From positions 1 to 64,000 of the forward strand of contig CALXKS010000008.1 in NCBI GenBank assembly GCA_944389015.1: a stretch of DNA of 64,000 bases. The letters are read 5' to 3'. Below the pieces are notes generated by a model. It was not told the DNA's origin and searched no databases. It was given only the letters and a program-made list of their open reading frames with translations. Source of the stretch: an uncultured Spirochaetaceae bacterium (GTDB lineage: Bacteria > Spirochaetota > Spirochaetia > Sphaerochaetales > Sphaerochaetaceae). Of the stretch, positions 4,237 to 54,512 are shown in pieces (the stretch's first letter is position 1; the number at the start of each line of letters is the position of its first letter). Both the position numbers and the translations under genes were made by a program.

Positions 4237-4242
4237 TAGAAT
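4237..4242 (+). promoter_or_regulatory. extended -10 (TGC-TAGAAT), leaderless start for 4250
   Basis: TGC directly followed by TAGAAT, seven nt before the ATG at 4250. No Shine-Dalgarno sequence is present. It lies just after the preceding terminator, so it should drive a new unit. Confidence 0.55.
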
Positions 4243-4249
4243 CATTGCT

Positions 4250-4783
4250 ATGGATAAAAGACTTATCAAGGCTGCGACTGTCATTATCATCGTGATTCTC
4301 ATAGCGGCAGTGTATTTCATAAAGAATGAAGGAAGCATTTCCCTTATACAGGGAACGATTGATGAGAATGCAGGCATGCTCCAGAGCGGAAGGGAAAGCC
4401 TTGAGATACATGGGTTCTCGCCAGAGATGGTCACATCATCGGAAATCCCTATGATAATCGTCATCGGAGAGGACTACTGCCAGCCATGTCTGAGGATGAT
4501 GCCGGATCTTGAGGAGCTGCACCGCACCCATGATGATATTTCCATAAGGTATATCGATCTTGGAGAGAACGAGGACGCTGCGGCATTCTTCCCGATACGC
4601 GTAACACCAACGATTGCAATATACGAGAAGAATGGAATGCCTTTCGAGCCCGGAGAAGATTCGGGAATCTCCTATCTGCTCTACTCTGACAGGAATACAG
4701 GCGAGCATGTGATGACAGTCCATGAGGGCTACCTTACACGAAGCGAGCTCGAGAGCCTCATAGAGGAAGTCATAAGTGATTGA
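4250..4783 (+). CDS. membrane-anchored thioredoxin-like protein
   Basis: A 177-residue protein with an N-terminal membrane anchor (residues 8-25) and no lipobox, then a thioredoxin fold with the redox motif C-Q-P-C (Cys77/Cys80) and the cis-proline region V-T-P-T near residue 120. It should act on the outer face of the inner membrane as a thiol-disulfide reductant. The gene overlaps by 8 bp with a CcdA-type electron carrier, the usual partner that feeds electrons to such proteins. The ATG at 4250 was chosen because a -10 box ends 7 nt before it; an in-frame TTG at 4229 would add 7 residues that do not fit the leader. The target protein is unknown, and no cytochrome c genes are seen nearby. 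Confidence 0.8.
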   Translation: MDKRLIKAATVIIIVILIAAVYFIKNEGSISLIQGTIDENAGMLQSGRESLEIHGFSPEMVTSSEIPMIIVIGEDYCQPCLRMMPDLEELHRTHDDISIRYIDLGENEDAAAFFPIRVTPTIAIYEKNGMPFEPGEDSGISYLLYSDRNTGEHVMTVHEGYLTRSELESLIEEVISD

Positions 4784-5462
4784 AAGTATTCTCAGGAATA
4801 TGGCCGATATGATATCCCAGGGAGGGATATCCGCACCGCTTATTGCGTTCATAGCCGGCATCATCACCGCAGTCACCCCGTGCTCTCTATCGCAGCTCCC
4901 GCTCGTATTAGCATACGTCGGAGGGGAGGAATCACCATCCAAGGCCTTCCGTCTATCAGCAGTCTATTCGGTGGGGCTCGCAGTCACATTCACGGCATTC
5001 GGAGCAGCGGCAGCACTCCTTGGAAATCTCATTGGGAATGCTGGAAAGCTCTGGTATATGATCCTTGGGGCACTTATGGTGCTTATGTCCCTGCAGATAC
5101 TCGGCATATTCAATCCAATACCCTCAACATACCTTTCTGCTGCGAATAAAAGAAGGGGATACACAGGTGCGCTCATTGCAGGAATCCTCGGAGGAGTGTT
5201 CTCCTCCCCTTGCTCCACTCCTGTCATAATCGCACTACTGACAGTAATCGCAGCAGAAGGAACATTGGCAAGGGGAATCCTGCTGATGCTTCTCTATGCG
5301 CTGGGATCATCGGCTCTTGCGCTCGTTCTCGGCTTCTCACCTGCCCTCATCAGGAAGCTCGGGAGATCTGAGAAGATGCATAGTGTATCCAGAGTTCTGA
5401 ATGCGGTGCTCGGCATCGCTGTACTGGCCCTTGGACTATATATGCTCTATCTTGGGTTCTGA
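4776..5462 (+). CDS. CcdA-like transmembrane thiol-electron carrier
   Basis: A 228-residue polytopic membrane protein of the CcdA/DsbD-transmembrane family. Six hydrophobic helices are visible. The first conserved Cys lies in T-P-C-S near residue 35 and the second in S-S-P-C-S-T-P near residue 147; these two Cys pass electrons from cytoplasmic thioredoxin to extracytoplasmic thioredoxin-like proteins. It starts with GTG overlapping the upstream thioredoxin-like gene by 8 bp and has GAGGAAG as Shine-Dalgarno, so the two are translationally coupled. The 3' end overlaps the convergent gene by 16 bp. Confidence 0.85.
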   Translation: MIESILRNMADMISQGGISAPLIAFIAGIITAVTPCSLSQLPLVLAYVGGEESPSKAFRLSAVYSVGLAVTFTAFGAAAALLGNLIGNAGKLWYMILGALMVLMSLQILGIFNPIPSTYLSAANKRRGYTGALIAGILGGVFSSPCSTPVIIALLTVIAAEGTLARGILLMLLYALGSSALALVLGFSPALIRKLGRSEKMHSVSRVLNAVLGIAVLALGLYMLYLGF

Positions 5463-5908
5463 ATCTCCTCAGGCTCTGCAATCTCATCAAAAGTATCCAG
5501 GATGATGGAAAGGAGGAATTCAATCATGCTATCCTCATTATCCGATCCATGGTACTCACCAAGACTTTCCTTGCTTCCTTCTCCATACATGCTTATATGC
5601 ACAGGTCCATAGAAGCTCTTCACTCCATAATCCGCCTGAAGCTCTTTAAGAGACATTCCCATCAACGGAGCCATAGCCCTGAGATCATCGCGCTCAAGCC
5701 CGGCCTCAAAAAGATACCTCCCCTCTATATGGGCAGTCGCTGCCAGCGGAACATCAATCACAGAGGACTCCGATGAGAGCTCCGGCCTGCGATGGATCCT
5801 TATCTCTATATCACCAGCCTTATAGCGCTTTATCACAGCAGAATCAGGCCTTACGATTGTCTGGAATGCATTCATATCAATTTCATCGGAATTGCGATCA
5901 AGTATCAT
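5447..5908 (-). CDS. hypothetical protein, 153 aa
   Basis: A soluble, acidic 153-residue protein with no signal peptide, membrane segment or recognised motif. The middle (E-S-S-V-I-D-V-P-L-A-A-T-A-H-I-E-G-R) has a beta-strand-rich look, and the C-terminus is rich in Glu and Ile. It starts 4 bp inside the end of the YihY-family gene (ATGA-type overlap), so it is the last gene of the three-gene unit 8056-5447. No function is proposed. Confidence 0.65.
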   Translation of the reverse strand: MILDRNSDEIDMNAFQTIVRPDSAVIKRYKAGDIEIRIHRRPELSSESSVIDVPLAATAHIEGRYLFEAGLERDDLRAMAPLMGMSLKELQADYGVKSFYGPVHISMYGEGSKESLGEYHGSDNEDSMIEFLLSIILDTFDEIAEPEEIQNPR

Positions 5909-8095: not shown

Positions 8096-8124
8096 TTGGC
8101 AATAATCGCAATCTGGTGCATTAT
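8096..8124 (+). promoter_or_regulatory. promoter giving a leaderless start at 8131
   Basis: -35 TTGGCA (8096-8101), 17-nt spacer, -10 CATTAT (8119-8124), then only six nt to the ATG at 8131. There is no Shine-Dalgarno sequence. Transcription would start at or next to the start codon. Confidence 0.6.
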
Positions 8125-8130
8125 CTCGGT

Positions 8131-8622
8131 ATGCCGATCCTCATCACCTCAGACATCCATGGAAGCCGGGAAGGCGTGAAGCTTCTTGAGAGCGCTATCA
8201 GGGAATACAAGCCTGAAATGATAATCTCCGCAGGAGATCAATGCCCTGATGAGGAGAATGCCGCATTCTATTCATCGCTGAAAGCTGTACGTGGCAATTG
8301 CGACAGATTCTACGAGTATGGGAATATCCCATTCCCGCCGCTATCGCTGACACTGAAAGCCTATGGACGGAGCATCACGGTAACGCATGGCGACAGACTA
8401 TACTATGATGATTTCTCTCTCGCTTCCGGTGATATATTCATATCAGGACATACACATGTACCTGTACTGGAGGAGAAGGATGGGATCTATATATGCAATC
8501 CGGGGTCACCTTCACGGCCAAGATCCTCTGAAGGACCGTCAGCAGTGCTTCTGACGGAATCCGGAATATCCCTTCTGTCTCTCTTATCCCTGGATTTCCT
8601 CCGTACGCTTTCCTTCCGCTGA
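8131..8622 (+). CDS. YfcE/MJ0936-type metallophosphodiesterase
   Basis: A 163-residue calcineurin-like metallophosphoesterase of the small YfcE/Vps29 family. Metal ligands are visible as D-I-H-G near residue 8, G-D-Q near residue 40, R-G-N-C-D near residue 60, T-H-G-D near residue 90 and G-H-T-H-V-P near residue 112. It should hydrolyse phosphodiesters in the cytoplasm. The start at 8131 was preferred over GTG at 8116 because a -35/-10 pair places the transcript start next to it. The last 136 bp overlap the 3' end of the convergent gene; the true family fold ends near L-L-T-E-S-G-I. Confidence 0.85.
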   Translation: MPILITSDIHGSREGVKLLESAIREYKPEMIISAGDQCPDEENAAFYSSLKAVRGNCDRFYEYGNIPFPPLSLTLKAYGRSITVTHGDRLYYDDFSLASGDIFISGHTHVPVLEEKDGIYICNPGSPSRPRSSEGPSAVLLTESGISLLSLLSLDFLRTLSFR

Positions 8623-10205
8623 GATCTGCTGCAGCGTTCCTCAAGACGTCCAAGCTCCGAAAGGTAGTATGAGAAGAGACGTGCAGCGGGCACGGTGCGC
8701 CCATTGAAATCAGAGATGAAATGATCCGGAAGCTTATCAGGTTCCTGAAGGCTCAGAGCTTTAAGAAGCTCCAGTCCCTTTTCCAGAATCTCCTTTCCTT
8801 TCTTCCCGTATGCGCTGAATGACAGTGCAGCAATTCTAAGCACCCCCGGGAAGCGATATACTATCGAAGGAAATCTCCCAAACCATGAGACGAGGGCAGG
8901 AAAAGGCGAATAACCCATGGAAATAAGATACAGCGAGTAAACACCTTCATATAGAGCCATGACAGCACTGGCCTCAGGGGATAGAGGCTTATCCGGAAGA
9001 TAATCGGAGGCCAGAGGCATGAAGGGAAATGCGAATGCCGTAGCGATGGCATCAGGGAAGGATCCTCTGAGATCTGATGGAACGGGCCTTCCGTCTACGC
9101 ATCTGATTTCCCCGATGATTCCCTTTGTCAGCTTTCTGCTGTAATCGCTGCCGCTGCCTATCATATGGATTATCCTTGCATAGTCATCAGCACCTCTGTT
9201 CTTAAGAGAAGGGAGCATAGGATCATCCGTTTTGGAAAGCTCGTATAGCACAGAGCTCAGATAGGCTATATCAAGGCCCTCTTCTATCGCAGCATCTCTT
9301 AGCTTCTTTACGCTCTCCGGGGAGAAGAAACCGAGATTCGAACCGAGAAATGCCGAATCCCTCCAGCTTGGAAGCAATGCTCCATCCTGTGTTTTCCTGA
9401 GGCATGACACGATGCAGTCATTGCAGCGGTGGGGAAGAATGCCATATCTATCCATAAGCGCTTTTCCATCCAGCAGATATGCTCTTGGATCAAAACGGTC
9501 CCTATAACCATATACAGGAAGCCATCCCAGGCGGAGAGCACTGTCAATCATCCTGCAGCTTCCCTCGATCTTCAGAGCCCTGAGGGCCCTGGATCTTTCA
9601 ATCTTCCTATTGTATGCGTTGCTATCCTTCTCCGCAGAAGACCTGCGGAAGCATGGCATCGATATTCCCTTGAGATTCCTTACTCCGAAAAGATATCCAA
9701 GACCATCAGAAGGAATCTCCATCCCGTCGGAAATGAGAGAAGAATAAACGACGCCATTCTCCCCTGCTCTTCCTATTGCAAGATAGGAATCTGTACTGCT
9801 GTCAGAGAATGCTGAACCGAATCCTGCGGCGCTCATTCCTGCAGTCTTCTCTGCAGATACGACACAAGCCCCCGCGGATGAAAGCGCAATAGCAGAGAGC
9901 CTCCTGGCTCTTCCTGTTACCACCAGAGAACTGATCCCAAGCCTAAGGAGGGAATATCCCGGCGAAAGATTTGAGAAAACCACGGCTCGCCTTGAAGTGA
10001 CAGGGGAACGGAAGACTATGGAAAAGAATGAGGAACCCCGGAAAGCAGTGCTTTCTGGAGATGGAGCGGAGATTACGATAGGATCATCCTGCTGGAATCT
10101 ATCATAGAGTTTCAGACCAAGCTCAAGCGCAGAGCTATTGCTATATTCCCCAGCCTCAATGTCTTCATATGTTCCACTATCCAGAGCTATATGGATTATG
10201 CGCAT
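8487..10205 (-). CDS. degenerate aldehyde:ferredoxin oxidoreductase-like protein
   Basis: A 572-residue relative of tungsten-dependent aldehyde ferredoxin oxidoreductase (AOR). The N-terminal AOR domain is recognisable (R-S-P-V-T-S near residue 66, I-G-R-A-G-E-N near residue 145). Three Fe-S ligands are kept as C261-x2-C264-x3-C268, and an E-E-G-L-D segment resembles the pterin-binding D-x-x-G-L-D. The distal fourth Cys motif and the second pterin motif of active AORs are not seen, and the expected Cys before G-L-D is replaced. It may be non-catalytic or use an altered cofactor. The last ~45 residues are Arg/Ser/Asp-rich and lie inside the convergent phosphodiesterase gene, so they are probably a read-through tail. 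The start at 10205 was chosen because a perfect TATAAT ends six nt upstream; an upstream in-frame ATG (10286) would add 27 residues unlike the family. Confidence 0.65.
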   Translation of the reverse strand: MRIIHIALDSGTYEDIEAGEYSNSSALELGLKLYDRFQQDDPIVISAPSPESTAFRGSSFFSIVFRSPVTSRRAVVFSNLSPGYSLLRLGISSLVVTGRARRLSAIALSSAGACVVSAEKTAGMSAAGFGSAFSDSSTDSYLAIGRAGENGVVYSSLISDGMEIPSDGLGYLFGVRNLKGISMPCFRRSSAEKDSNAYNRKIERSRALRALKIEGSCRMIDSALRLGWLPVYGYRDRFDPRAYLLDGKALMDRYGILPHRCNDCIVSCLRKTQDGALLPSWRDSAFLGSNLGFFSPESVKKLRDAAIEEGLDIAYLSSVLYELSKTDDPMLPSLKNRGADDYARIIHMIGSGSDYSRKLTKGIIGEIRCVDGRPVPSDLRGSFPDAIATAFAFPFMPLASDYLPDKPLSPEASAVMALYEGVYSLYLISMGYSPFPALVSWFGRFPSIVYRFPGVLRIAALSFSAYGKKGKEILEKGLELLKALSLQEPDKLPDHFISDFNGRTVPAARLFSYYLSELGRLEERCSRSQRKESVRRKSRDKRDRRDIPDSVRSTADGPSEDLGREGDPGLHI

Positions 10206-10211
10206 AGGTCG

Positions 10212-10217
10212 ATTATA
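10212..10217 (-). promoter_or_regulatory. -10 box TATAAT, leaderless start for 10205
   Basis: Perfect TATAAT on the minus strand, six nt from the ATG at 10205. No Shine-Dalgarno sequence lies between. It is back to back with the promoter of the divergent kinase gene. Confidence 0.6.
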
Positions 10218-10290: not shown

Positions 10291-10296
10291 TATCAT
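10291..10296 (+). promoter_or_regulatory. extended -10 (TGC-TATCAT), leaderless start for 10303
   Basis: TGC followed directly by TATCAT, six nt before the ATG at 10303. No convincing -35 or Shine-Dalgarno sequence is seen. Confidence 0.55.
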
Positions 10297-10302
10297 TAGG
10301 AC

Positions 10303-11955
10303 ATGGAAAAGATCAAAGTACTGATTGATGGCGTGGAGATTGCCGCAGAAGCGGGAACAGAGCTCCTGAGCCTTGTCGACAGATACAGCATAAGCTATAT
10401 GGATAATCCTATAGCTGCGGCATATGTCAATGGCTATATAGTCTCCCTCCGAGAAAGAGTCGAAGGCAATGCTGAGATAAAGACCATCAGGGTGATATCG
10501 CAGGAGGGAAAGCGGGTATACAGGAAGTCCCTCTGCTTCCTTCTCTGCTATGCTTCCGCCCTTATTGCGCCGGAAAGGACTCTGATCATAGGGCACAGCC
10601 TTGGAGATGGCTTCTTCTTCCGCTACAGAGATGGAATGAAGCCTGATACGGATAAACTCAGGAAAGCCATGCAGGATGCTGTCAGGGACAATCTTCCGAT
10701 AGATATAGTAACGCTCTCTGCGGAGGAGGCAATCGCCTACTCTGAGAACAGGAGACTGGATGAGACAAAGAAGCTTCTGATGACAGAGAATGGGAGCGAT
10801 TACAGATTCGCGAAGATGGGGACATGCTATGAACTGTACCATGAGCCGATGCTTCCCTCTGCAGGGTATATAGGATTATGGGAACTGATGGATTATCAGG
10901 GGGGCCTGCTCCTAAGGTATCCACAATCAAGAAGCCCATTCCAGATCATGCCCTTTTCTGATAATCCCCTGCTCTTCTCCGTATTCAGGGAGAACAAGAG
11001 AATATCGGAAATCCTTGAGATCAGATCCCTCGGAGATCTTAATATGAAGATTGCTGATGGTACGATAACGGAGACCATAAGGCTCTCCGAATCGCTTCAG
11101 AGACAGAGAATTGCCTCGATTGCCTCTGCAATAAAGGAGAAAGGGTCGGTAAAAGCGGTATTCATCGCAGGGCCATCATCATCAGGGAAGACAACATCAT
11201 CGATGAAGCTGACAGATGAGCTGAAGATTCTCGGATATGAACCCATAAGGCTTTCTCTTGACGATTACTATCTTTCAGAACCGGATATCCCAGTGGATGA
11301 GAACGGGGAAAAGGACTTCGATGTCCTTCATTCGCTGGATATCCCTCTATTCAGGAGCCAGCTTTCCGACCTGACTGTAGGAAAAGAGATCCACCCTGCT
11401 TCACATTCATTCAAGGAAAAGAAAACAGTTCTCAGTGAAAACACTATCAGGATGGGAGATAAATCAATACTGATCATTGAGGGCATCCATGGACTTAACC
11501 CCGCTCTGATAGCTGATTTCCCTGAGGATCTTGTTTTCCGCGTATACATCTCAGCGCTGACACAGGTAAATCTGGATACAAGGCTGAGGATAAGCACTAC
11601 AGATAACCGTATTCTGAGAAGAATGGTCCGCGACAATAGAACAAGAGGGATAACAGCATCTGAAACACTGAAAAGATGGCCTCAGGTCGAACGAGGGGAG
11701 AAAAACAATATCTTTCCCTTCCAGAACAACGCAGATGTTATGATAAACAGTGCTCTTGAGTATGAACTGCCTGTCCTCTCTGTTTATGCGATCCCACTCC
11801 TGAAATCCGTAAAGAAGGAGGATGGCGAACCATATGCCGTTGCAAGAAGACTCATAGATTTCCTGAGTCTTATCTATCCGATGCCATCTGAGCAGGTGCC
11901 TCCAGACTCAACGCTCAGGGAATTCATCGGAGGATCTATTTACGGTGCTATCTGA
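10303..11955 (+). CDS. TGS-like/uridine-kinase-like fusion (nucleoside kinase)
   Basis: A 550-residue cytoplasmic protein. Residues 1-60 resemble a TGS/ThiS-type beta-grasp domain, and residues 60-220 resemble the second (editing-like) domain of threonyl-tRNA synthetase. From about 280 there is a phosphoribulokinase/uridine kinase domain with Walker A G-P-S-S-S-G-K-T-T near residue 290, a substrate segment S-L-D-D-Y-Y, and the family's E-G-I-H-G-L-N-P. This three-part layout is known in bacterial 'nucleoside kinase' annotations. The substrate is unproven; uridine or cytidine phosphorylation is the family's activity. It is transcribed divergently from the AOR-like gene and starts directly after a -10 box. 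Confidence 0.8.
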   Translation: MEKIKVLIDGVEIAAEAGTELLSLVDRYSISYMDNPIAAAYVNGYIVSLRERVEGNAEIKTIRVISQEGKRVYRKSLCFLLCYASALIAPERTLIIGHSLGDGFFFRYRDGMKPDTDKLRKAMQDAVRDNLPIDIVTLSAEEAIAYSENRRLDETKKLLMTENGSDYRFAKMGTCYELYHEPMLPSAGYIGLWELMDYQGGLLLRYPQSRSPFQIMPFSDNPLLFSVFRENKRISEILEIRSLGDLNMKIADGTITETIRLSESLQRQRIASIASAIKEKGSVKAVFIAGPSSSGKTTSSMKLTDELKILGYEPIRLSLDDYYLSEPDIPVDENGEKDFDVLHSLDIPLFRSQLSDLTVGKEIHPASHSFKEKKTVLSENTIRMGDKSILIIEGIHGLNPALIADFPEDLVFRVYISALTQVNLDTRLRISTTDNRILRRMVRDNRTRGITASETLKRWPQVERGEKNNIFPFQNNADVMINSALEYELPVLSVYAIPLLKSVKKEDGEPYAVARRLIDFLSLIYPMPSEQVPPDSTLREFIGGSIYGAI

Positions 11956-15116: not shown

Positions 15117-15509
15117 CTACAAGATTTCAGAGGTTATATACTCAGCAATTTTCCTATCAGAAGGGCCAAAGTCGTATCCAAGAAGCTCTTCCTTAGGAAC
15201 ATAGGCCGTCCCTGTATGTACAGAAAGGGAGAAGGTATCAGAGAGAGGATGCACAAGACAGCACTTCAGATGATAGAGCTTTCCGTTATTGGTGAAATCA
15301 AAAGCAAGGACCTCCTCTCCTACCTCGATTCCCACTCCAAGCTCTTCATCCCATTCCCTTATGAGAGTGTCTGCAACAGATTCGCCATAACGGTTCTTTC
15401 CTCCGGGAAACTCCCATTTGCCGGAAAGGGATCCTCCGGGGATTCTGTGGGCGATAAGAACCTTACCATCTTTGATTGCAATTCCAGCTGTAGTGATTCT
15501 TTCTTCCAT
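15117..15509 (-). CDS. MutT-type Nudix hydrolase (8-oxo-dGTP diphosphatase-like)
   Basis: A 130-residue Nudix protein that starts exactly at the conserved T-A-G-I-A-I strand. The motif G-K-W-E-F-P-G-G-K precedes a complete Nudix box G-x5-E-x7-R-E-W-D-E-E-L-G. This is the MutT arrangement, which sanitises oxidised dGTP. The ATG at 15509 is six nt from a perfect TATAAT (15516-15521) preceded by TGC, with no Shine-Dalgarno sequence, so it is probably translated from a leaderless mRNA. That promoter overlaps the 3' end of the upstream gene. Confidence 0.85.
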   Translation of the reverse strand: MEERITTAGIAIKDGKVLIAHRIPGGSLSGKWEFPGGKNRYGESVADTLIREWDEELGVGIEVGEEVLAFDFTNNGKLYHLKCCLVHPLSDTFSLSVHTGTAYVPKEELLGYDFGPSDRKIAEYITSEIL

Positions 15510-15515
15510 ATGACC

Positions 15516-15524
15516 ATTATAGCA
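15516..15524 (-). promoter_or_regulatory. extended -10 (TGC-TATAAT), leaderless start for 15509
   Basis: Minus-strand TGCTATAAT, perfect in both elements, ending six nt before the ATG at 15509. It overlaps the last codons of the upstream membrane-protein gene, so it would be an internal promoter of that string of genes. Confidence 0.65.
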
Positions 15525-15921: not shown

Positions 15922-17282
15922 CTTACCTTCCCTACTGAGAGAATCAGCTCATCAGCTGAATAGAATCCATAATCTTCATGCGCTCTCCTTCCAGCCCTCT
16001 GATGAAGGATAACTCCATCAACAGCAGCCTGCATAGGCTCTTCCCCCTGAGCCAGAAGCGTTGCGATTATTCCAGACAGGACATCTCCGGAACCTGCGAC
16101 TCCAAGGGAAGGGTTTGCTCCATCATAGATATAGATATCATCCCCGGAGGTTATCCATACTGTCGATGATTTAAGAACGATCACAGCGGAAAGCTTCCTC
16201 GCAAGATTCCTAAGTGCAGCGGAAAGCTCTGTCACAGATGAGAGCCCGTCATCCATGCCGATTGATTCCATAAGCCTTCTATACTCCCCGATATGAGGAG
16301 TGAGCACAGCCCGATTGCCGAAATCATGTCCGGCTGCGAATTTCAGGCCATCTGCATCAAGCACCATATTCTTCCCTGAAGCTATAGCACTATCAAGCAG
16401 ATCGGGATCACCGCAGCCCCATCCTGGTCCGACGAGAAGCGCATCATAGCGTGAAAGATCCGAGCTAGGTTTCCTTATCATGAATGAGGGATTATCATCA
16501 CGTATCTTCTCGGAAGAAGTCATGACCGTCACAAGGCCACAGCCGGAGAAGAAAGCAGCGCGGCCTGCAAGCCTTGGAGCTCCTGTATATTCATCAGATC
16601 CTCCGATGATGGCTATATGCCCTCTGCTGTTCTTGAAATCAGCAGTCCCGATTCTGTGGATATGGCTATCATTATCTGAAAGAAGATAAGTTCCAGAAGG
16701 ACTGAACGCCAACTCCGCCGGAGGGAAACCCGGATTGAATATATGGATATCCCCAGCAATGCCACGCAATGACGGAAGATACAATTCAAGCTTCGGTGTC
16801 ATGAAAGATACAGTGATATCAGCACGTATTATCCCGCCGGAAGGAACATCCATTGCAATCCTGAGAGCACCGGCACCGATCTCCGAATCCAGCTTCCTTA
16901 TGATTCCATCGCTTCCCTCTCGATATGAAAATCCGAAAAGCGCATCAATAACAACATCAAATCCAGAAGGAGAATCCTCGATATCAACACATGAAGGAAG
17001 CCTCCTTCTCCTTTCCAGATTCTCCCTGTTTCCATTCGCATAGGGAAGAATAACCGAAACATCATAGCCATCTGCTGCCATAAGGCAAGCCAGCTCCAAT
17101 CCATCGCAGCCATTGTTGCCAGGGCCGATCATAACAGCAATGCGGCCTCTCAGTACTGACCGGATAATCCCATAAGCACCTTTTGCTGCACTATCAATCA
17201 GCGCAGAAGATGAAAGACCATACTGCTCTATCAGCAAACGGTCTTTATTTCCGGCATCAGATAGCGAATAAATGGCATCCAT
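15918..17282 (-). CDS. nnrD: bifunctional NAD(P)H-hydrate epimerase/dehydratase
   Basis: A 454-residue two-domain repair enzyme. The N-terminal YjeF_N (NnrE) epimerase domain has G-P-G-N-N-G-C-D-G near residue 50. The C-terminal carbohydrate-kinase-like NnrD domain has G-G-S-D-E-Y-T-G-A-P near residue 230, G-P-G-W-G-C near residue 290 and the nucleotide motif N-P-S-L-G-V-A-G-S-G-D-V-L-S-G near residue 400. It converts damaged NAD(P)H hydrates back to NAD(P)H. The start at 17282 begins at the conserved region, and a TAGAAT box lies seven nt upstream with no Shine-Dalgarno sequence. Confidence 0.9.
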   Translation of the reverse strand: MDAIYSLSDAGNKDRLLIEQYGLSSSALIDSAAKGAYGIIRSVLRGRIAVMIGPGNNGCDGLELACLMAADGYDVSVILPYANGNRENLERRRRLPSCVDIEDSPSGFDVVIDALFGFSYREGSDGIIRKLDSEIGAGALRIAMDVPSGGIIRADITVSFMTPKLELYLPSLRGIAGDIHIFNPGFPPAELAFSPSGTYLLSDNDSHIHRIGTADFKNSRGHIAIIGGSDEYTGAPRLAGRAAFFSGCGLVTVMTSSEKIRDDNPSFMIRKPSSDLSRYDALLVGPGWGCGDPDLLDSAIASGKNMVLDADGLKFAAGHDFGNRAVLTPHIGEYRRLMESIGMDDGLSSVTELSAALRNLARKLSAVIVLKSSTVWITSGDDIYIYDGANPSLGVAGSGDVLSGIIATLLAQGEEPMQAAVDGVILHQRAGRRAHEDYGFYSADELILSVGKVR

Positions 17283-17289
17283 ATCAGTT

Positions 17290-17295
17290 ATTCTA
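17290..17295 (-). promoter_or_regulatory. -10 box TAGAAT, leaderless start for 17282
   Basis: Minus-strand TAGAAT, seven nt before the ATG of nnrD. No ribosome-binding sequence lies between. Confidence 0.5.
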
Positions 17296-26820: not shown

Positions 26821-26826
26821 TATATT
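26821..26826 (+). promoter_or_regulatory. extended -10 (TGA-TATATT), leaderless start for 26835
   Basis: TGA followed by TATATT, eight nt before the ATG at 26835. No Shine-Dalgarno sequence is present in the 39-nt gap after the preceding gene. Confidence 0.45.
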
Positions 26827-26834
26827 GTTAACCG

Positions 26835-28397
26835 ATGGATAATCTGGCAGCAAAACGATTGAATAGAATCAATAAATCAAAGCTGAATACGACTATTGCT
26901 CTGACAACTTCTGTATTGATGGGTGTATTAAGCTTCGCTGAAAGAACAGTATTCAATCACTGTTTTATTGCAGACTATCTTGGACTATATAGTTTCTTTT
27001 ACAATATTATTGGTATCTTAAGTACAATAGAACTTGGGGTAACAAGTGCAATATCTTTTGCCCTTTATGCTCCAATTGAATATAAGCAATATGATCAGAT
27101 TGCTGCTATATTACGTTTATTCAAACGCACTTACAGATTAATTGGAACAATAATATTATTTGCTGGCCTTTGTTTATTTCCAATACTTGGAACACTAATT
27201 AAAACTGAAATTCCAATTGAGGATGTCAGACTTTACTTCTCTTTTTTCCTGATCAAAACTGTCGTTATATATTATGTAACGTACAAGGGTATTCTTATTA
27301 CCGCCAATCAAAATCAATATAAATCATCTATCATCACCAATTCTGCATGGTCAATTTTATATATTGCAGAAATGATTATCTCAATTACAACACATAATTT
27401 TTTATTATATTGTGTTGCAATCTTTGTTTTCGAAACATTGCGATGTGTAGCAATGTACATCGTTGGAGGAAGAGAATTCCCTGAAATAAGAAAATACAAA
27501 AAAGCTAAATTATCATCTGATAATGCTAAAATTATAATAAAGAACGTTAAAGGTTTGATAATAACTAGAATCAGTTCCGTGCTTGTAACATCGACAGACT
27601 CGTTACTGATCAGTGCAATGGTCGGAACTGCTTTTCTTGGTAAATATTCAAACTATCAGATGATAACAACCGGACTCATGACGATAACGGCTCTGGTGCC
27701 TCAATCAATAACTGCAAGTGTTGGCAATGCTGGCGTAACAGAAACAAAGAGAACGATGTCAAAAAGCTTTGAGATCCTGAACATGGCATCATTCTTCGTG
27801 TATGGGCCAATGATAATCGTACTGATAAATATCATTAATCCGATCATATCCACTTTTTTCGGAGCAGACAGAGTAATAGACATTTTCTCTGTAGCCCTTG
27901 TATGTACCAGCTTTTATTTATCAAACCAGAGAGAAATCATTCTTACATTCAAGTCCTCTCTTGGATTGTATTGGGAGGATCGCAAGCGTCCGGTAGTCGA
28001 AGGGCTTACCAATCTGATTGTATCCATCATCCTTGGGAAGTTCTGGGGATTCGATGGGATAATCATCGGCACAATCGTATCACAGGTTTTCGTGAACCTG
28101 ACTATCGAACCTCGGGTTATCTATCATGAAGGACTGCATAGCTCGGCTTTCTGGTATTACATAGTAACATCAGGAAGATGCCTCCTGACAATCTTCCTAT
28201 CATTGATATGCTTTATCATCAACAGCCACATTGAATTGTCAGGAATACCCCAGATTATTGTTTATACTTTGGTTTCTATTTTGATTACTGTACCAGCGTT
28301 TCTCTTGCTATATCACAGAAACGAAGACGCCAGGACGATATTCAGAACAGTGAGAATAGCTTTCCAGAAAAGAAAGAACAAGACTAAATCAGATTGA
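26835..28397 (+). CDS. polysaccharide flippase (Wzx-like, MOP superfamily)
   Basis: A 520-residue integral membrane protein with 12-14 hydrophobic segments and the polysaccharide-transporter look of Wzx/MATE relatives (N-terminal R-x-x-K-x-x-x-x-x-x-x-L-T-T-S-V-L-M-G). It would flip undecaprenyl-linked glycan units to the outer face. It follows the glycosyltransferases in the same direction. The gene's 3' end overlaps the convergent GT28-like gene by 9 bp. No Wzy polymerase is seen in the window. Confidence 0.8.
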   Translation: MDNLAAKRLNRINKSKLNTTIALTTSVLMGVLSFAERTVFNHCFIADYLGLYSFFYNIIGILSTIELGVTSAISFALYAPIEYKQYDQIAAILRLFKRTYRLIGTIILFAGLCLFPILGTLIKTEIPIEDVRLYFSFFLIKTVVIYYVTYKGILITANQNQYKSSIITNSAWSILYIAEMIISITTHNFLLYCVAIFVFETLRCVAMYIVGGREFPEIRKYKKAKLSSDNAKIIIKNVKGLIITRISSVLVTSTDSLLISAMVGTAFLGKYSNYQMITTGLMTITALVPQSITASVGNAGVTETKRTMSKSFEILNMASFFVYGPMIIVLINIINPIISTFFGADRVIDIFSVALVCTSFYLSNQREIILTFKSSLGLYWEDRKRPVVEGLTNLIVSIILGKFWGFDGIIIGTIVSQVFVNLTIEPRVIYHEGLHSSAFWYYIVTSGRCLLTIFLSLICFIINSHIELSGIPQIIVYTLVSILITVPAFLLLYHRNEDARTIFRTVRIAFQKRKNKTKSD

Positions 28398-29573: not shown

Positions 29574-29580
29574 TGTTCCA

Positions 29581-32085
29581 ATGAAGGGCAATAATAATTA
29601 CATGGTGAAAATCATGGGATTTATCATGAAGCATTCGGCTGCTGTCCTGATAGCAATTCTCCTGATAACGGTTTTCTTTTTCATAAATCTTTTCAAGTTA
29701 CAGATGAATGCAGATGTTTTTGCATATGCAGCATATGCTCCGCCTTCGGAAATAATCACAACACCTGAGAATAAACCCAAAGAACGTCTTCATGTCAGCG
29801 GAATAGATGAAGATACGTCAGCAATATATCCTGACAGGGGGGAGGTAGTCGAAGTACCGGAACGTGTCAATTCTATCTTGGCTGAAGATCTATCCGGAAC
29901 ATCGGAATTCTCTCCGGTTGAACCGATAATCAATGAGTATGAAGGTGACAAAGGCGATGGCAATTTCTATGACGGATATGTCATCATATTCACCTCAGAC
30001 AGGATGTTCGATCCAGAGGTTCTGAATACAATCTATGATGTCCGGAGCAACCTTGAGAAGCGATGGGAAATCGGCACATGCCTTTCACCATTTGATTATG
30101 TTACAGTCGATAAAAAAGGATCCAGATTATCGGTGACTCCAATCGCTCCCGTAAAACCTGGGGAGACATGGACAGAAGAAGATGCAGAAATATTCCGTGA
30201 AAGGCTGATGAACGACTCTGTTGCAAAAAACTATCTGTATACAGATGATGGCTCAACCATAATGATATATTACAGGGCACGGGATCTGAATCAGCAATCA
30301 ATCGCAGAACTTGATACATTGGTCAATCCACTTAGGGAGTATGGTCATGTTGCGCTTAACGGAGGAGGATTGATCAACAGCGCAGTAATGAAGTATCTCA
30401 ATAGGGATCTTATAACATTGCTTATTCTCTGCTTTGCTGTGATCCTCATTGTATTCTATCTATCCTTCAGATCATTGAAATCCATGCTGCTTCCTGCATC
30501 GCTTTCATTGATTGGAATAATCTGGACTCTGGGGACAATGGCCATTGCAGGTTATCAGCTGACCATCGTAACAATTCTCACACCATGTCTTGTTCTCACA
30601 TTGGGTTCATCCTATTCAATACACATGGTCAGTGAATACTTCGAGACACTGGCACAGAATGACAAGGAGAATCTGGCTGCGCACTTTGCAAAGATCTCAA
30701 AGACAATATTCTTCGCAATGGCTACAACAATCGCAGGTTTCCTTTCTCTATTGATCTGCAGGACTCCATTGTTCAAGGACTTTGGCGTTACGATATCAAT
30801 CGGAGTGCTTTATTGTGCAATACTGGCATTCACCTACCTTCCTGCCATGCTGACAAGAATGAAAATGCCGGCACAGAAGAAGATCAAGTCCGTGCACGAT
30901 GGAATTCTTGTCAGAATTATACGCAGATTCTCTGTCATCATCACAGAGAAATGGTGGATATTCCTGATTATCACATTGCTTATAATCATTCTTTTCGCTT
31001 TTGTGAATGACAAAATCGGCTTTGATTCCAATTATATGTCATATTTCCCCGCAGATGATCCTATTGTCAAAGATTCAATCTATTTTGCTAAGACACTTGG
31101 AGGTACGGATCCATACTATCTGACAATCACTGCTCCGGATAATGAATCAGGGTTCTTCCTTAACCATGATAATCTGAAACTTGTCTATGCTTATGAAAGC
31201 GCTATAAGAGCAGCATGTCCTGATATTGTCCAGATTCTATCCTTCAGTCAGTACGTAAGTTTCCTCAATGAAGTATATAATGGATCACCAGGAATCCCTG
31301 ACAGCGATGGACTTCTTAATCTGCTTTCCCGTGTCCTCAAGCAGATAAGCGCACAGATTGGTTCCGATGTCCTGAATGTTCTGATAAACGAAGATGCTTC
31401 ACAGATTACTCTTTCGATGCGGAATTATGATTCTGTAGAACAGGATCTTCAGACAACAGCCAGCGCACGGCGATTGGAGACTGTCCTTGATTACTACAGA
31501 TATATGCTGCCAACAGGAACTACCAGCGAGATCCACTGTCCTGCCTCGAATGGCTTAAGAGCCAGTAATATGATAATGGTCGATCAGAACAGATCTACAG
31601 TGCTTTCAATGGTTATAATCCTGATTCTGGCATCCTGCGCAGTCGGATCGATCAAATATGGAATATCTGCTCTTATACCAGTCATGGTAGGAGTCATGAT
31701 CAACTACATATTCATGTGGGCTGCAGGAATTCCTTTTGACATCGTCACAGTAGGATTCTCTTCAGTAGCAATCGGATCAGGAATTGATGATGCCCTGCAT
31801 TTTATAATCAGATACAGGCTGAAACAAAAAGAACATCTGGCTTTGCCCACAAAGGAATTGCTTAAGCAGAATATCATAGAAACAGGCAGACCGATCATAT
31901 TGACATCGCTCAGCATTGATGCAGGTTTGATTATGCTTGTCTTTGCATCGTATACACCGATTCAGTATTTTGGAATATTGATGTGTATTGCACTTACAGT
32001 TGCGATGCTCGCTACGCTCTGTATTTTGCCACCAACGATTATCCTTTCTGATAAGATAGGTGAAAAGCTAAAGAAATCACATTGA
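29581..32085 (+). CDS. RND-superfamily transporter, MMPL-like
   Basis: An 834-residue membrane protein with the twofold RND layout: one transmembrane helix, a large extracytoplasmic loop, five helices, then a repeat of helix, loop and five helices. The conserved S-I-D-D-A-L-H-F-type motif appears as G-S-G-I-D-D-A-L-H-F-I-I-R-Y near residue 735, and T-I-A-G-F-L-S-L after helix 4 of the first half. It resembles MMPL/hopanoid-type exporters that move lipids or lipid-linked compounds using proton motive force. The neighbouring glycolipid synthase suggests a lipid cargo. The start at 29581 is favoured by the adjacent -10 box; an in-frame ATG at 29530 lies in the divergent promoter. Confidence 0.8.
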   Translation: MKGNNNYMVKIMGFIMKHSAAVLIAILLITVFFFINLFKLQMNADVFAYAAYAPPSEIITTPENKPKERLHVSGIDEDTSAIYPDRGEVVEVPERVNSILAEDLSGTSEFSPVEPIINEYEGDKGDGNFYDGYVIIFTSDRMFDPEVLNTIYDVRSNLEKRWEIGTCLSPFDYVTVDKKGSRLSVTPIAPVKPGETWTEEDAEIFRERLMNDSVAKNYLYTDDGSTIMIYYRARDLNQQSIAELDTLVNPLREYGHVALNGGGLINSAVMKYLNRDLITLLILCFAVILIVFYLSFRSLKSMLLPASLSLIGIIWTLGTMAIAGYQLTIVTILTPCLVLTLGSSYSIHMVSEYFETLAQNDKENLAAHFAKISKTIFFAMATTIAGFLSLLICRTPLFKDFGVTISIGVLYCAILAFTYLPAMLTRMKMPAQKKIKSVHDGILVRIIRRFSVIITEKWWIFLIITLLIIILFAFVNDKIGFDSNYMSYFPADDPIVKDSIYFAKTLGGTDPYYLTITAPDNESGFFLNHDNLKLVYAYESAIRAACPDIVQILSFSQYVSFLNEVYNGSPGIPDSDGLLNLLSRVLKQISAQIGSDVLNVLINEDASQITLSMRNYDSVEQDLQTTASARRLETVLDYYRYMLPTGTTSEIHCPASNGLRASNMIMVDQNRSTVLSMVIILILASCAVGSIKYGISALIPVMVGVMINYIFMWAAGIPFDIVTVGFSSVAIGSGIDDALHFIIRYRLKQKEHLALPTKELLKQNIIETGRPIILTSLSIDAGLIMLVFASYTPIQYFGILMCIALTVAMLATLCILPPTIILSDKIGEKLKKSH

Positions 32086-35754: not shown

Positions 35755-35760
35755 TATATT
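35755..35760 (+). promoter_or_regulatory. extended -10 (TGC-TATATT), leaderless start for 35767
   Basis: TGC followed by TATATT, six nt before the ATG at 35767, with no Shine-Dalgarno sequence. Confidence 0.55.
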
Positions 35761-35766
35761 CAGGTT

Positions 35767-36564
35767 ATGAATGATCCACGAGACAACGATTTCCAGTCTA
35801 TGGCAGTGCTTATAGATGCAGATAACACACAGCTCCCGAAGATCGAGAGCGTTCTCCATGAGCTCTCTGCGTATGGCAGGATAATAGTCAAGAAAGCATA
35901 TGGGAACTGGAAGAAGCAGATCCTCTCAAAGTGGGAGGATGAGATAAAGAGACTCGCAATCAAGGCTGAGCAGCAGTTCGACTATGTGGCAGGAAAGAAT
36001 ACTACGGATATAGCAATGGTGATAGATGCAATGGATCTGCTGCATACTGGCATGTATGATGCTGTTGCCTTAGTATCAAGCGACAGTGATTTCACCCCAC
36101 TTGCTGTCAGGCTGAGGGAATCAGGCATGTATGTCATAGGTGTCGGGGAGAAGAAGACCCCTGAAGCGTTCTGCAATGCCTGTGATGACTTCATCTATCT
36201 TGAGTATCTCAAATCATCAGAGCCTAAGAAGGAGAAGAAGACCGAGAAGAAGAGCCAGAAGTCAAAGAAACAGGCGAATGCGGTCTCTGACAGCTTAGAT
36301 GAAAAGGATAATGACACCCCTGACCTCGATGAGATCCATACGCTTCTGCGCATTGCATATGAGAAATACCAGGATGATGATGGCTTCATAAACGTCAGCA
36401 GCGCCGGGACATATATCAAGCGAGTGAAGCCGGAGTTCAATACATATCTCTACGGATTCCAGAAGCTGTCGGACCTGATCAGGGCTTTCCCCGACAGATA
36501 CGAGGTCAAGCGGTACTCAACAAACGGCAATGCCGGTGTCGTCATGTACCGCTGCAGGAACTAG
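35767..36564 (+). CDS. NYN-domain (LabA/DUF88-like) protein with C-terminal LOTUS domain
   Basis: A 265-residue protein. Residues 1-150 are a NYN/PIN-like nuclease fold with the acidic triad region: L-I-D-A-D-N near residue 15, K-N-T-T-D-I-A-M-V-I-D near residue 80, S-S-D-S-D-F near residue 105. A Lys-rich linker (160-185) follows, then a LOTUS/OST-HTH domain (195-265). Bacterial NYN-LOTUS proteins are thought to act on RNA. The start at 35767 is six nt from an extended -10, so the mRNA may be leaderless. The 3' end overlaps hydF by 4 bp in convergent orientation. Confidence 0.8.
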   Translation: MNDPRDNDFQSMAVLIDADNTQLPKIESVLHELSAYGRIIVKKAYGNWKKQILSKWEDEIKRLAIKAEQQFDYVAGKNTTDIAMVIDAMDLLHTGMYDAVALVSSDSDFTPLAVRLRESGMYVIGVGEKKTPEAFCNACDDFIYLEYLKSSEPKKEKKTEKKSQKSKKQANAVSDSLDEKDNDTPDLDEIHTLLRIAYEKYQDDDGFINVSSAGTYIKRVKPEFNTYLYGFQKLSDLIRAFPDRYEVKRYSTNGNAGVVMYRCRN

Positions 36565-48481: not shown

Positions 48482-48487
48482 TATTAT
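48482..48487 (+). promoter_or_regulatory. -10 box TATTAT, leaderless start for 48494
   Basis: TATTAT, six nt before the ATG at 48494. A GGAGGT further upstream (13 nt away) is too distant to serve as a normal ribosome site. TATACT (48485-48490) overlaps it as an alternative -10. Confidence 0.45.
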
Positions 48488-48493
48488 ACTGGT

Positions 48494-49294
48494 ATGGAAC
48501 GATATGCGGAATTCGCAGGGAACTGGTACCCTGAAAACGGGGATGAACTCGATGAATATGTCCGTCCTGATCTTTTCGGATATGGCGGCATAATGGATGC
48601 TGTGCTTCCACATGCAGGCCTGTACTACAGCAGAGATATTATAAGGCAGTACTTCGAGAAGATGGATGAGAAGATATGCAGAATAGTCATAATATCCCCA
48701 TCGCACTATTTCAGGCTTCCTCCAGACATGCTGTGCACTGCCAGATTCACCTCATCCCGGACGCCATATGGAAGCATAGAGACCATACCGCTTGAAACGG
48801 AGGAAAGCATAGTTTCCGAGGCTGCGCTGCAGAAGGAGCATGGCATTGAGATGTTCCTGCCATTCATCAAAGCCGCAGGAGTCGCTGTATCCTACGCCCT
48901 TATAAACGAAGTATCGGGGATGGAAAGCATAAACAGAATAGCAGAAGAGCTTATTGGGATAACAGATGGGAATACTGGATTCATTGCCTCATCAGACTTC
49001 ACTCACTATGGAAGACGCTTTGGATACATGCCATATGGCAATGAGGCAGAGAGCAGAGTCAGGGAGCGCGACTGCGAATGCGCAAGGCTTCTGAGCCGGA
49101 TGGAGACAGAGGAAGTCCTCAGGAGATTCACAGGAGGGACTATCTGCGGCATCACCCCTGCGATGATCATAAGCCGGGTTGCCGAGCTGAAAGGGAGAAC
49201 GGGCTGTACAGGCCTTTTCTGCACATCAGATGATATCACAGGAAGCAGATCCGAGAACTTCGTTTCATACCAGAGCGTACTATGGAGGAGATGA
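48494..49294 (+). CDS. AmmeMemoRadiSam system protein B (Memo-like)
   Basis: A 266-residue Memo-family protein. It has A-G-x-W-Y-P near residue 8, P-H-A-G-L-Y-Y-S near residue 37 (His), I-I-S-P-S-H-Y near residue 65 and S-S-D-F-T-H-Y-G near residue 160, the His/Asp set of Memo/extradiol-dioxygenase-like folds. First of three genes that always occur together as the AmmeMemoRadiSam system; its biological role is unknown. Overlaps the next gene. Confidence 0.9.
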   Translation: MERYAEFAGNWYPENGDELDEYVRPDLFGYGGIMDAVLPHAGLYYSRDIIRQYFEKMDEKICRIVIISPSHYFRLPPDMLCTARFTSSRTPYGSIETIPLETEESIVSEAALQKEHGIEMFLPFIKAAGVAVSYALINEVSGMESINRIAEELIGITDGNTGFIASSDFTHYGRRFGYMPYGNEAESRVRERDCECARLLSRMETEEVLRRFTGGTICGITPAMIISRVAELKGRTGCTGLFCTSDDITGSRSENFVSYQSVLWRR

Positions 49295-53321: not shown

Positions 53322-53330
53322 ATTCTACCA
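53322..53330 (-). promoter_or_regulatory. extended -10 (TGG-TAGAAT), leaderless start for yedE
   Basis: Minus-strand TGG directly before TAGAAT, ending seven nt before the yedE ATG at 53314. Confidence 0.6.
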
Positions 53331-53359
53331 TCTGCTTTTCTATAAAACAATGGGAAATA

Positions 53360-53368
53360 TGGTATAAT
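53360..53368 (+). promoter_or_regulatory. extended -10 (TGG-TATAAT), leaderless start for 53376
   Basis: TGG followed by a perfect TATAAT, seven nt before the ATG at 53376. Only 61 bp separate the two divergent start codons, so the yedE and desulfurase-like promoters overlap and are probably co-regulated. Confidence 0.65.
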
Positions 53369-53375
53369 CAATCAC

Positions 53376-54512
53376 ATGCGTATTTATCTCGACAATGCCG
53401 CAACATCCTTTCCGAAAGCTCCGGGAACTGGAGATGCCATAAAGCATTTCATTGAGAAGGATGGCGTCAATCTCTACAGAACAGCCTCAAGAAAAGCAGA
53501 TGAGGTCTGGGACAGGATCTTCTCTCTCAGGATGCTGATAGCAGGACTGTACTACTACCCCCACCCTGAATGCATCGCATTCACGATGAATGTCACAGAG
53601 GCTTTGAATATGATGATAAAAGCCGTCGTCCCGGAAGGAGGTCATGTCATCACGACATCATCTGAGCACAACGCTGTGATGAGGCCTCTTTCCCAGCTCA
53701 GGGCTGTGGTATCAAGAATACCGGCGGATAGATATGGCTTTTCAGATATGGCCAGGATCCCGGAGCTGATAACTCCAGGGACCAAGGCCGTGATAATCAA
53801 CGCTGCAGGCAATGTATCAGGAGCGGTACAGGATATAGCTGCTGCTGGGGAAATTGCCGATGAATATGGAATACCGCTTATCATTGATGCCGCACAGGCC
53901 TCCCCTGCTGTAGATATCAATATGGAGGAAACAAAGGCTGCCGCCATATGCTTTACAGGGCACAAAGGCTTTCTTGGTCCACAGGGAACAGGAGGTGCCG
54001 TTATCCGGAAAGACATAGCGGAAAGCATCTCCCCCCTTATTGCTGGAGGAACCGGAACGGAGAGCGATGATGAGGGAATACCCAGCACAATTCCGGAAAG
54101 GCTGAGAGCTGGAACAGAGAACCTTCCAGGCCTCATCGGGCTATATCATGCATTGTCATATACTCTCCGCAACAGAGGCAGCATCGAAAAGCACATTGAA
54201 TGCATTTCGGAAAGATTGTATGAGGGGCTGAGATCAATCGATGGTATTACAATCCACGGGCCGGGCATTGATGCACCACGCGTAGCGGTATTCTCAGTAA
54301 CGATGAAGGACAGGGACCCAGCGGAGGTTGCTGCCGCCCTTCTTAAAAGAGGGAGCATCGAGACAAGGGTTGGACTGCATTGTGCGCCATCTGCACACAA
54401 GACACTCGGGACATTCCCTGAAGGCACTCTCAGAATCTCTCCGGGGCCGTTCACAACCGCAGATGAGATCGATGCCCTCCTTGCTCTTCTGAAGGAGATT
54501 TCCAATGAATAA
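53376..54512 (+). CDS. class V aminotransferase, cysteine/selenocysteine desulfurase-like
   Basis: A 378-residue PLP enzyme. L-D-N-A-A-T-S near residue 5, S-S-E-H-N-A near residue 88, D-A-A-Q near residue 172, the PLP lysine in T-G-H-K-G near residue 196, and the catalytic Cys loop G-L-H-C-A-P-S-A-H near residue 333. It is the type of desulfurase seen with SDMH genes and would release selenium or sulfur for the labile selenium cofactor. Overlaps the next gene by 8 bp. Confidence 0.88.
   Translation: MRIYLDNAATSFPKAPGTGDAIKHFIEKDGVNLYRTASRKADEVWDRIFSLRMLIAGLYYYPHPECIAFTMNVTEALNMMIKAVVPEGGHVITTSSEHNAVMRPLSQLRAVVSRIPADRYGFSDMARIPELITPGTKAVIINAAGNVSGAVQDIAAAGEIADEYGIPLIIDAAQASPAVDINMEETKAAAICFTGHKGFLGPQGTGGAVIRKDIAESISPLIAGGTGTESDDEGIPSTIPERLRAGTENLPGLIGLYHALSYTLRNRGSIEKHIECISERLYEGLRSIDGITIHGPGIDAPRVAVFSVTMKDRDPAEVAAALLKRGSIETRVGLHCAPSAHKTLGTFPEGTLRISPGPFTTADEIDALLALLKEISNE

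What the first reader, a model, noticed from the sequence alone, without database searches (positions are those of the whole stretch)
4237..53378. A recurring leaderless-start layout: extended -10 box ending 6-8 nt before the ATG
Most first genes of transcription units in the window lack a Shine-Dalgarno sequence but have a -10 hexamer at a fixed distance from the ATG. Start / -10 / gap: 4250 / TAGAAT 4237 / 7; 8131 / CATTAT 8119 / 6; 10303 / TATCAT 10291 / 6; 10205(-) / TATAAT 10212 / 6; 15509(-) / TATAAT 15516 / 6; 17282(-) / TAGAAT 17290 / 7; 26835 / TATATT 26821 / 8; 29581 / TATCAT 29568 / 7; 35767 / TATATT 35755 / 6; 48494 / TATTAT 48482 / 6; 53314(-) / TAGAAT 53322 / 7; 53376 / TATAAT 53363 / 7. 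Seven of the twelve also carry TGn just before the hexamer. Operon-internal genes mostly have good AGGAGG sites. The geometry places +1 on or beside the A of ATG. Leaderless mRNAs are well known in Actinobacteria and Deinococcus; I do not know of a description of such a systematic use in spirochaetes.
Basis: partly seen in the sequence, partly recalled or inferred. Interest (0 to 1): 0.75.

Follow-up and report, generated by a model that had tools for sequence, protein, structure and literature searches.

The report
Leaderless genes common in a spirochaete
In this uncultured spirochaete, and in at least some close relatives, roughly a third of the genes that begin a transcription unit look as if they are transcribed starting at their start codon, with no ribosome-binding leader; this way of starting genes is known in other bacteria but seems unusually frequent here.

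Summary
It is not chance. In 627 kb of the same genome not selected for the motif, with starts chosen blind to upstream signals, TAnnnT ends 6 or 7 nt before the start in 45 hits among 224 unit-first genes (about 11 expected from the upstream background); internal genes show 11 in 204 (about 5 expected). Held-out mixture models put 35-38% of unit-first genes in the -10 class, so 'most' overstates it. Features not used for selection agree: pyrimidine at -1 (62 of 76), TTG 17 bp upstream of the hexamer (15 of 76). The same pipeline gives 0% for E. coli and 15-29% for Deinococcus deserti. Same-genus orthologues tend to keep the mode (13 of 20 against 9 of 40). Best reading: sigma-70-type promoters whose +1 is the A of ATG. 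Leaderless mRNAs in spirochaetes are already in print (Leptospira, ~440 mRNAs; earlier predictions up to 6.9% of genes). New is the high level in this lineage. No RNA data were available.

The parts
4237..4252 (+). -10 TAGAAT (4237-4242, TGn before it), gap 7, ATG 4250 (thioredoxin-like gene)
   Evidence: exact match, L 0.94; Pfam Thioredoxin
8119..8133 (+). -10 CATTAT (8119-8124), gap 6, ATG 8131 (metallophosphoesterase gene); TTGGCA 17 bp upstream
   Evidence: exact match, L 0.60; Metallophos_2 from residue 1
10291..10305 (+). -10 TATCAT (10291-10296, TGn), gap 6, ATG 10303 (uridine kinase-like gene)
   Evidence: L 0.96; orthologues in G105 and G081 also class L, G046 not
10203..10217 (-). 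-10 TATAAT (10212-10217), gap 6, ATG 10205 (aldehyde ferredoxin oxidoreductase-like gene)
   Evidence: L 0.97; orthologues in G105, G081, G046 also class L
15507..15521 (-). -10 TATAAT (15516-15521, TGn), gap 6, ATG 15509 (NUDIX gene)
   Evidence: L 0.98; Pfam NUDIX
17280..17295 (-). -10 TAGAAT (17290-17295), gap 7, ATG 17282 (YjeF_N / Carb_kinase gene); CTGACA 17 bp upstream
   Evidence: L 0.94; Pfam
26821..26837 (+). -10 TATATT (26821-26826, TGn), gap 8, ATG 26835; weak case
   Evidence: L 0.84, model prefers gap 6; same-strand ORF ends 26795
29568..29583 (+). -10 TATCAT (29568-29573), gap 7, ATG 29581 (MMPL family gene); start uncertain (ATG 29530 in frame)
   Evidence: L 0.95
35755..35769 (+). 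-10 TATATT (35755-35760, TGn), gap 6, ATG 35767 (NYN domain-like gene)
   Evidence: L 0.91; the motif-blind start was 35800
48482..48496 (+). -10 TATTAT (48482-48487), gap 6, ATG 48494 (AmmeMemoRadiSam B gene); GGAGG ends 14 nt before the ATG
   Evidence: L 0.88, S 0.07; NCBIfam TIGR04336
53312..53327 (-). -10 TAGAAT (53322-53327, TGn), gap 7, ATG 53314 (Sulf_transp gene)
   Evidence: L 0.96; Pfam
53363..53378 (+). -10 TATAAT (53363-53368, TGn), gap 7, ATG 53376 (cysteine desulfurase family-like gene)
   Evidence: L 0.98
2942..2956 (+). additional site: -10 TACATT (2942-2947), gap 6, ATG 2954 (iron-containing alcohol dehydrogenase gene)
   Evidence: L 0.87 at 2954; the motif-blind start was 2960; Pfam
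55935..55949 (-). additional site: -10 TATCAT (55944-55949, TGn), gap 6, ATG 55937; the upstream same-strand gene lies 54 nt away
   Evidence: L 0.96

Best explanation
The layout is a set of genuine sigma-70-type promoters (TATAAT-like -10, often TGn before it, some with TTG 17 bp upstream) placed so that RNA polymerase starts on or beside the A of the ATG. The mRNA then begins with AUG and has no leader; ribosomes carrying initiator tRNA bind the 5' AUG directly, while downstream cistrons and the other large group of first genes start by Shine-Dalgarno pairing. About 30-40% of unit-first genes in this genome, and a similar share in two of three same-genus genomes sampled, use this mode. Shown: motif, spacing, -1 pyrimidine, -35 element, lack of SD, restriction to unit-first genes, conservation among same-genus orthologues. 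Inferred: the position of the 5' ends and the ribosomal step.
For: TAnnnT peak at gaps 6 and 7 (25 and 20 hits, 224 first genes, background 5.7 per position). Held-out L share 35% of 106 and 38% of 118 first genes, 0% after shuffling; internal genes 8% of 204. -1 pyrimidine 62 of 76 against 50 of 89 in SD-led first genes, p = 7e-4; TTG at spacer 17 in 15 of 76 against 0-5 at other spacers from 8 to 31; TG directly before the hexamer 21 of 76 against 1-12 at other offsets. Exact TGNTATAATN{5,8}ATG 22 times in this genome against 0 for the reversed pattern. Orthologues keep the mode: 13 of 20 against 9 of 40, p = 0.002. Negative control E. coli 0% (63 motif-blind, 43 annotated starts), positive control D. 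deserti 15% (58) and 29% (67).
Against: No transcript data. The model was fitted on this genome, which favours it against the comparison genomes; only the held-out 35-38% is free of that. The window slid 20 nt upstream still gives 6-8%. The -10 class is not conserved per gene in two other genera of the family (0 of 6), and one same-genus genome, G046, does not exceed its own control (20% against 18%). Raw counts of TANAATN{6,7}ATG exceed TANAATN{18,19}ATG only modestly (199 against 166). In the comparative paper PMC5397173 the six spirochaete species show no sign of the AT-rich upstream signal tied to leaderless genes (negative third component in the passage seen).
Confidence: 0.85

Rival explanations
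1. The promoters are real, but the true start codons lie further downstream, so the mRNAs do have leaders and the ATG at +1 is an annotation artefact.
For: Starts were chosen by coding potential and are uncertain for some genes (29581, 35767 and 2954 shift between runs or candidates).
Against: A leader would need an SD before a downstream start, yet in most of the 12 genes no downstream in-frame start within 120 nt scores as SD-led. The 8131 protein matches its domain from residue 1. Orthologues carry an L start at the aligned position in 13 of 20.
Confidence: 0.06
2. The mRNAs start further upstream and have real leaders without SD; the TAnnnT near the ATG is an AT-rich translation element, such as a bS1-binding or unstructured region.
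For: AT-rich non-SD signals of this kind are proposed in PMC5397173 (passages). A bS1-like protein is present.
Against: The signal has promoter grammar: -10 consensus, TGn, -35 TTG at 17 bp, pyrimidine at -1. L genes show no excess of other strong -10 hits further upstream, while SD-led first genes do (the lack of hits at gap 5-9 in the SD class is partly by construction).
Confidence: 0.06
3. Chance: AT-rich upstream regions produce TAnnnT near some ATGs.
For: Single sites such as 26835 and 8131 are weak; whole-genome raw counts are only modestly above the longer-spacer control.
Against: Gene-based test on unselected stretches, held-out estimates, shuffles, and features not used for selection.
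Confidence: 0.02

Closest known systems
TA-led (leaderless) genes of bacteria, Zheng et al. 2011 (PMC3160421; passages and one section with Table 2 read)
   Same: A -10-like TA signal about 10 bp before the start codon, read there as a leaderless gene; spirochaetes are among the groups with such genes.
   Different: There, spirochaetes have 1.8-6.9% of genes leaderless in 6 of 18 genomes. Here the L class of first genes alone amounts to roughly 14-18% of the 491 genes scored (my arithmetic: 39% of 224, with and without subtracting the 8% control).
Leaderless mRNAs of Leptospira interrogans, Zhukova et al. 2017 (PMC5243855; abstract and passages read)
   Same: Same phylum; about 440 mRNAs with leaders under 10 nt, half of them under 2 nt, mapped by dRNA-seq.
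   Different: Experimental, in another part of the phylum. That paper found no promoter motif beyond the sigma-54 type; here the -10, TGn and -35 are clear.
Deinococcus deserti leaderless transcriptome (1174 leaderless mRNAs as quoted in PMC5243855; original not read)
   Same: -10 hexamer 6-7 nt before the ATG of unit-first genes, SD for internal genes; seen here with the same model (29% of 67 first genes with annotated starts).
   Different: Unrelated phylum; the spirochaete share with the same model is similar or higher (35-38% held-out), but the model was fitted on the spirochaete and only part of one D. deserti plasmid was sampled.
Bacteria with predicted leaderless transcription, GeneMarkS-2 (Lomsadze 2018, not held; figures from PMC9581028, passages)
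   Same: 21.6% of bacterial species predicted to use it, in up to 40% of transcripts.
   Different: Whether any spirochaete is among them could not be seen ('spirochaet' does not occur in PMC9581028).

Membership tests
Leaderless (TA-led) genes | -10-like signal about 10 bp before the start codon, above chance | tested here: met
   gaps 6 and 7: 25 and 20 hits, 224 first genes, background 5.7 per position; held-out 35-38%
Leaderless (TA-led) genes | no Shine-Dalgarno sequence | tested here: met
   of 52 first genes with TAnnnT at -14..-12, 47 lack an SD core; among the 12 sites 10 lack one at -18..-5, and 10205 and 48494 have one
Leaderless (TA-led) genes | found at unit-first genes, not at internal genes | tested here: met
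   first 39% of 224, internal 8% of 204
Leaderless (TA-led) genes | transcript 5' end at the start codon | not testable with these tools
   no RNA data; -1 pyrimidine (62 of 76) is indirect support
Leaderless (TA-led) genes | translation from a 5'-terminal AUG without a leader | not testable with these tools
   needs reporter or in vitro translation
Sigma-70-type promoter | -35 element at about 17 bp from the -10 | tested here: met
   TTG at spacer 17 in 15 of 76, 0-5 at other spacers 8-31; met for the set, most single sites lack a good -35
Leptospira-type leaderless transcriptome | same lineage and same promoter type | tested here: inconclusive

The most novel reading that the evidence does not exclude
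An uncultured lineage of Spirochaetia has expanded leaderless initiation to levels like those of Deinococcus while keeping an ordinary Shine-Dalgarno system, and genes switch between the two modes between neighbouring genera. The layout also occurs at varying levels in Treponema-named gut and termite genomes, so part of Spirochaetia is a dual-mode group that start-site annotation built on SD models would handle poorly.
Probability: 0.6. Interest if true: 0.52.

Novelty: new member of a known kind. Interest (0 to 1): 0.42.

Why it matters
Leaderless initiation in bacteria is best known from Actinobacteria and Deinococcus. A spirochaete lineage with a comparable share, an intact SD system, and orthologues that switch mode gives a natural series for asking why genes lose or gain leaders. 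In practice, gene starts in these genomes can be corrected with the -10/ATG spacing. Treponema bryantii NK4A124, whose single locus here shows the layout at 4 of 9 first genes, is a named strain, so the prediction can be tested directly.

Tried and rejected
Raw pattern counts over whole genomes (TANAATN{6,7}ATG against TANAATN{18,19}ATG) were too diluted by background, and the longer-spacer control holds real promoters; they were replaced by gene-based tests. A fresh EM fit on shuffled or shifted sequence always finds some motif (22-38% on shuffles, 62% on the shifted window), so only fixed-model and held-out values are used. The stretches came mostly from contigs with exact motif hits and are left out of every rate; they enter only the orthologue tests, which condition on the own gene. 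Contigs C28 and C30 are therefore missing from the unselected set, which works slightly against the finding. G052, G101 and G069 were picked for their pattern excess; G057, G045, G060 and G038 for their single long contig; this is no random sample of families. The named loci surround one gene; with that gene removed, Treponema-named loci fall from L 33% (66 first genes) to 25% (58). Of the 80 loci, 74 were put into groups; 6 from other phyla were left out, and loci under 4,000 bases were skipped. In one search the Bacteroidota internal genes gave L 16% of 28, an unexplained value against the simple picture. The expectation that other genera of the family keep the mode per gene failed (0 of 6). 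The first gene-calling run missed the genes of 17.4-26.8 kb, so first genes there are under-counted.
Full report
Setting. The window is contig C8 of a 2.03-Mb draft genome in 83 contigs, 83% complete, with no 16S rRNA found. Its class was sampled with 98 genomes in 36 families. The five best named records by one conserved protein are Spirochaetales, Spirochaetae and Sphaerochaetaceae metagenome bins at 45-48% identity (records nearest the window may be left out there). So this is a spirochaete, probably of or near Sphaerochaetaceae (inference); the genus name is not known to me.

Check of the observation. All twelve hexamers lie at the stated coordinates with the stated gaps, and seven carry TGn. 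Eleven score 0.84 or more in the -10 class of the model described below; 8131 scores 0.60, but its protein matches Metallophos_2 from residue 1 and TTGGCA lies 17 bp upstream of its hexamer. Sites 26835, 29581 and 48494 are individually weak. Two further sites of the same kind, 2954(+) and 55937(-), were not in the list. Among 25 unit-first genes called in the window the mixture gives 42% -10 class and 45% SD class: about as many leaderless as SD-led, not most.

Is it more than chance? I took the first 20 kb (or the whole, if shorter) of contigs C1-C40 without regard to content, plus the rest of C2, and with the window had 39 stretches, 627 kb (C8 is the window; C28 and C30 had been taken in the selected set and are left out). 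Genes were called from coding potential alone, with no upstream signal used for the start (script). In 224 unit-first genes (upstream neighbour divergent, or 80 nt or more away) TAnnnT ends 6 nt before the start 25 times and 7 nt before 20 times; the mean per position from -60 to -31 is 5.7. In 204 internal genes: 6 and 5, mean 2.4. A three-class mixture (-10 class L, SD class S, background B) gives for first genes L 39%, S 45%, B 15%; for intermediate spacing L 24% (63 genes); for internal genes L 8%, S 71% (204). The fitted L matrix reads TAtaaT, and gaps 6 and 7 hold 70% of its weight. Ten dinucleotide shuffles under the fixed model give 0-2.6%; the window slid 20 nt upstream gives 8%. Training on one half and testing on the other gives L 35% (106 first genes) and 38% (118), with 0% on shuffled and 6-8% on slid test sets.

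Features that were not used to pick the class (all). Base -1 is a pyrimidine in 62 of 76 L genes against 50 of 89 SD-led first genes (Fisher p = 7e-4). TTG stands 17 bp upstream of the hexamer in 15 of 76, and 0-5 times at every other spacer from 8 to 31. TG directly before the hexamer: 21 of 76, against 1-12 at other offsets. L genes show no excess of strong -10 hits further upstream. SD-led first genes have most such hits at gaps 15-24 and 30-39; their lack of hits at gaps 5-9 is partly by construction, since such genes would fall in L. Of the 76 L genes, 55 are first, 10 intermediate and 11 internal. This is promoter grammar with +1 at the A of ATG, where a pyrimidine-purine step is the usual preference (established knowledge).

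Conservation. Reciprocal best hits were made against 76-99 kb each of three same-genus genomes. When the own first or intermediate gene is class L, an L start is found within 15 codons of the aligned start in 13 of 20 pairs; when it is not, in 9 of 40 (p = 0.002). The divergent pair 10205(-)/10303(+) keeps the layout on the 10205 side in three of three genomes and on the 10303 side in two of three, at 27-60% protein identity. In two other genera of the family it is 0 of 6 against 1 of 19. Divergent regions between two L genes have a median of 91 bp (10 pairs), between two S genes 186 bp (9 pairs), L with S 105 bp (11) (small numbers, no test made). Whole-genome counts of the exact extended motif TGNTATAATN{5,8}ATG exceed the reversed pattern in this genome (22 against 0) and in all 12 same-genus genomes of that search, though G011 has only 1 against 0.

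Comparison with the same pipeline (L share of first genes, number of genes in brackets; 'control' is the slid window). Own: 28% (91; one search set), 40% (108; one search set), window 42% (25); these are not held out. Same genus: G105 39% (43; control 11%), G081 41% (41; control 0%), G046 20% (30; control 18%). Same family: G021 15% (42), G065 19% (25; control 19%). Other families of the class: G052 29% (39), G060 22% (37), G101 20% (38), G057 11% (46), G038 8% (35), G069 2% (37), G045 0% (27) (all). Other classes of the phylum: G128 11% (43; control 19%), G143 4% (38), G145 0% (33), G152 0% (43). E. coli K-12 0% (63); Deinococcus deserti plasmid 2, 15% (58). With annotated starts D. deserti gives 29% (67) and E. 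coli 0% (43). With per-locus models on the named loci: nearest Spirochaetales/Sphaerochaetaceae 16% (46), or 11% (43) once the query gene is removed; Treponema-named 33% (66), or 25% (58); other spirochaetes 17% (120), or 15% (110); Bacteroidota 1% (178; but 16% of 28 internal genes, unexplained); Clostridia and others 4% (79); own sample 36% (216). -1 pyrimidine in the L genes of those groups: 3 of 3, 11 of 13 and 10 of 16. The orthologue of 10303 itself is class L in some spirochaetes and SD-led in others. The model was fitted on this genome, which favours it in all these comparisons.

Mechanism. Most likely the mRNA starts with AUG and is bound by initiator-tRNA-loaded ribosomes at its 5' end, while internal cistrons rely on SD pairing. 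A bS1-like match (TIGR00717) occurs in 21 of 21 genomes searched, own included, above the curated cut-off in 3 of 21, and only as a weak partial match in G009, so the translation apparatus gives no sign of being unusual. The 5' ends and the ribosomal step are inferred.

Literature. Full-text searches of the held library: leaderless + spirochaet (17 papers), leaderless + spirochete (14), leaderless + Leptospira + transcription start site (3), leaderless + Borrelia burgdorferi + transcriptome (15), leaderless + gene prediction + Treponema (2), leaderless mRNA + Treponema (1), leaderless + Sphaerochaeta (0), leaderless transcription + GeneMarkS-2 + upstream (15). Leptospira interrogans has about 440 leaderless mRNAs (PMC5243855), and 6 of 18 spirochaete genomes were predicted to have 1.8-6.9% leaderless genes (PMC3160421). 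Against this, PMC5397173 gives six spirochaete species a negative value for the component tied to leaderless or bS1 signals (passages). From the listings and the passages read, I saw no paper describing such use in Sphaerochaetaceae or gut Treponema; most subscription papers are not held, and most listed papers were seen only in the listing.

Verdict. A correct and careful observation; the phenomenon is of a known kind, present at an unusually high level in this lineage.

Noticed in passing
window 17422-26795: A run of polysaccharide-type genes (GDP-mannose dehydratase-like, nucleotidyl transferase, capsular polysaccharide synthesis, glycosyltransferase), headed by a SocA/Panacea antitoxin-like gene at 17422, had codon usage too atypical for the gene caller; probably foreign.
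   Followed up: partly
own genome, SD-led first genes: Strong -10 hits of SD-led first genes cluster 15-24 nt and 30-39 nt before the start, which would mean many leaders of only about 9-17 nt, little more than the SD itself.
   Followed up: no
window 53312-53378: Two divergent genes, both of class L, share a 61-bp intergenic region, so their -35 regions must overlap.
   Followed up: partly
G156:C1 (another class of the phylum): The string TGTTATAATATTCTTATG, and near copies, recurs many times over a contig of at least 2.4 Mb in this low-GC-looking genome: a repeated element or a fixed promoter-start unit.
   Followed up: no
window 12050-13285: A Mutator-family transposase gene with a good SD.
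   Followed up: no
L049-L121, orthologues of the gene at 10303: The same uridine kinase-like gene is class L in some spirochaetes and SD-led in others, a ready-made case for following a switch of initiation mode.
   Followed up: partly
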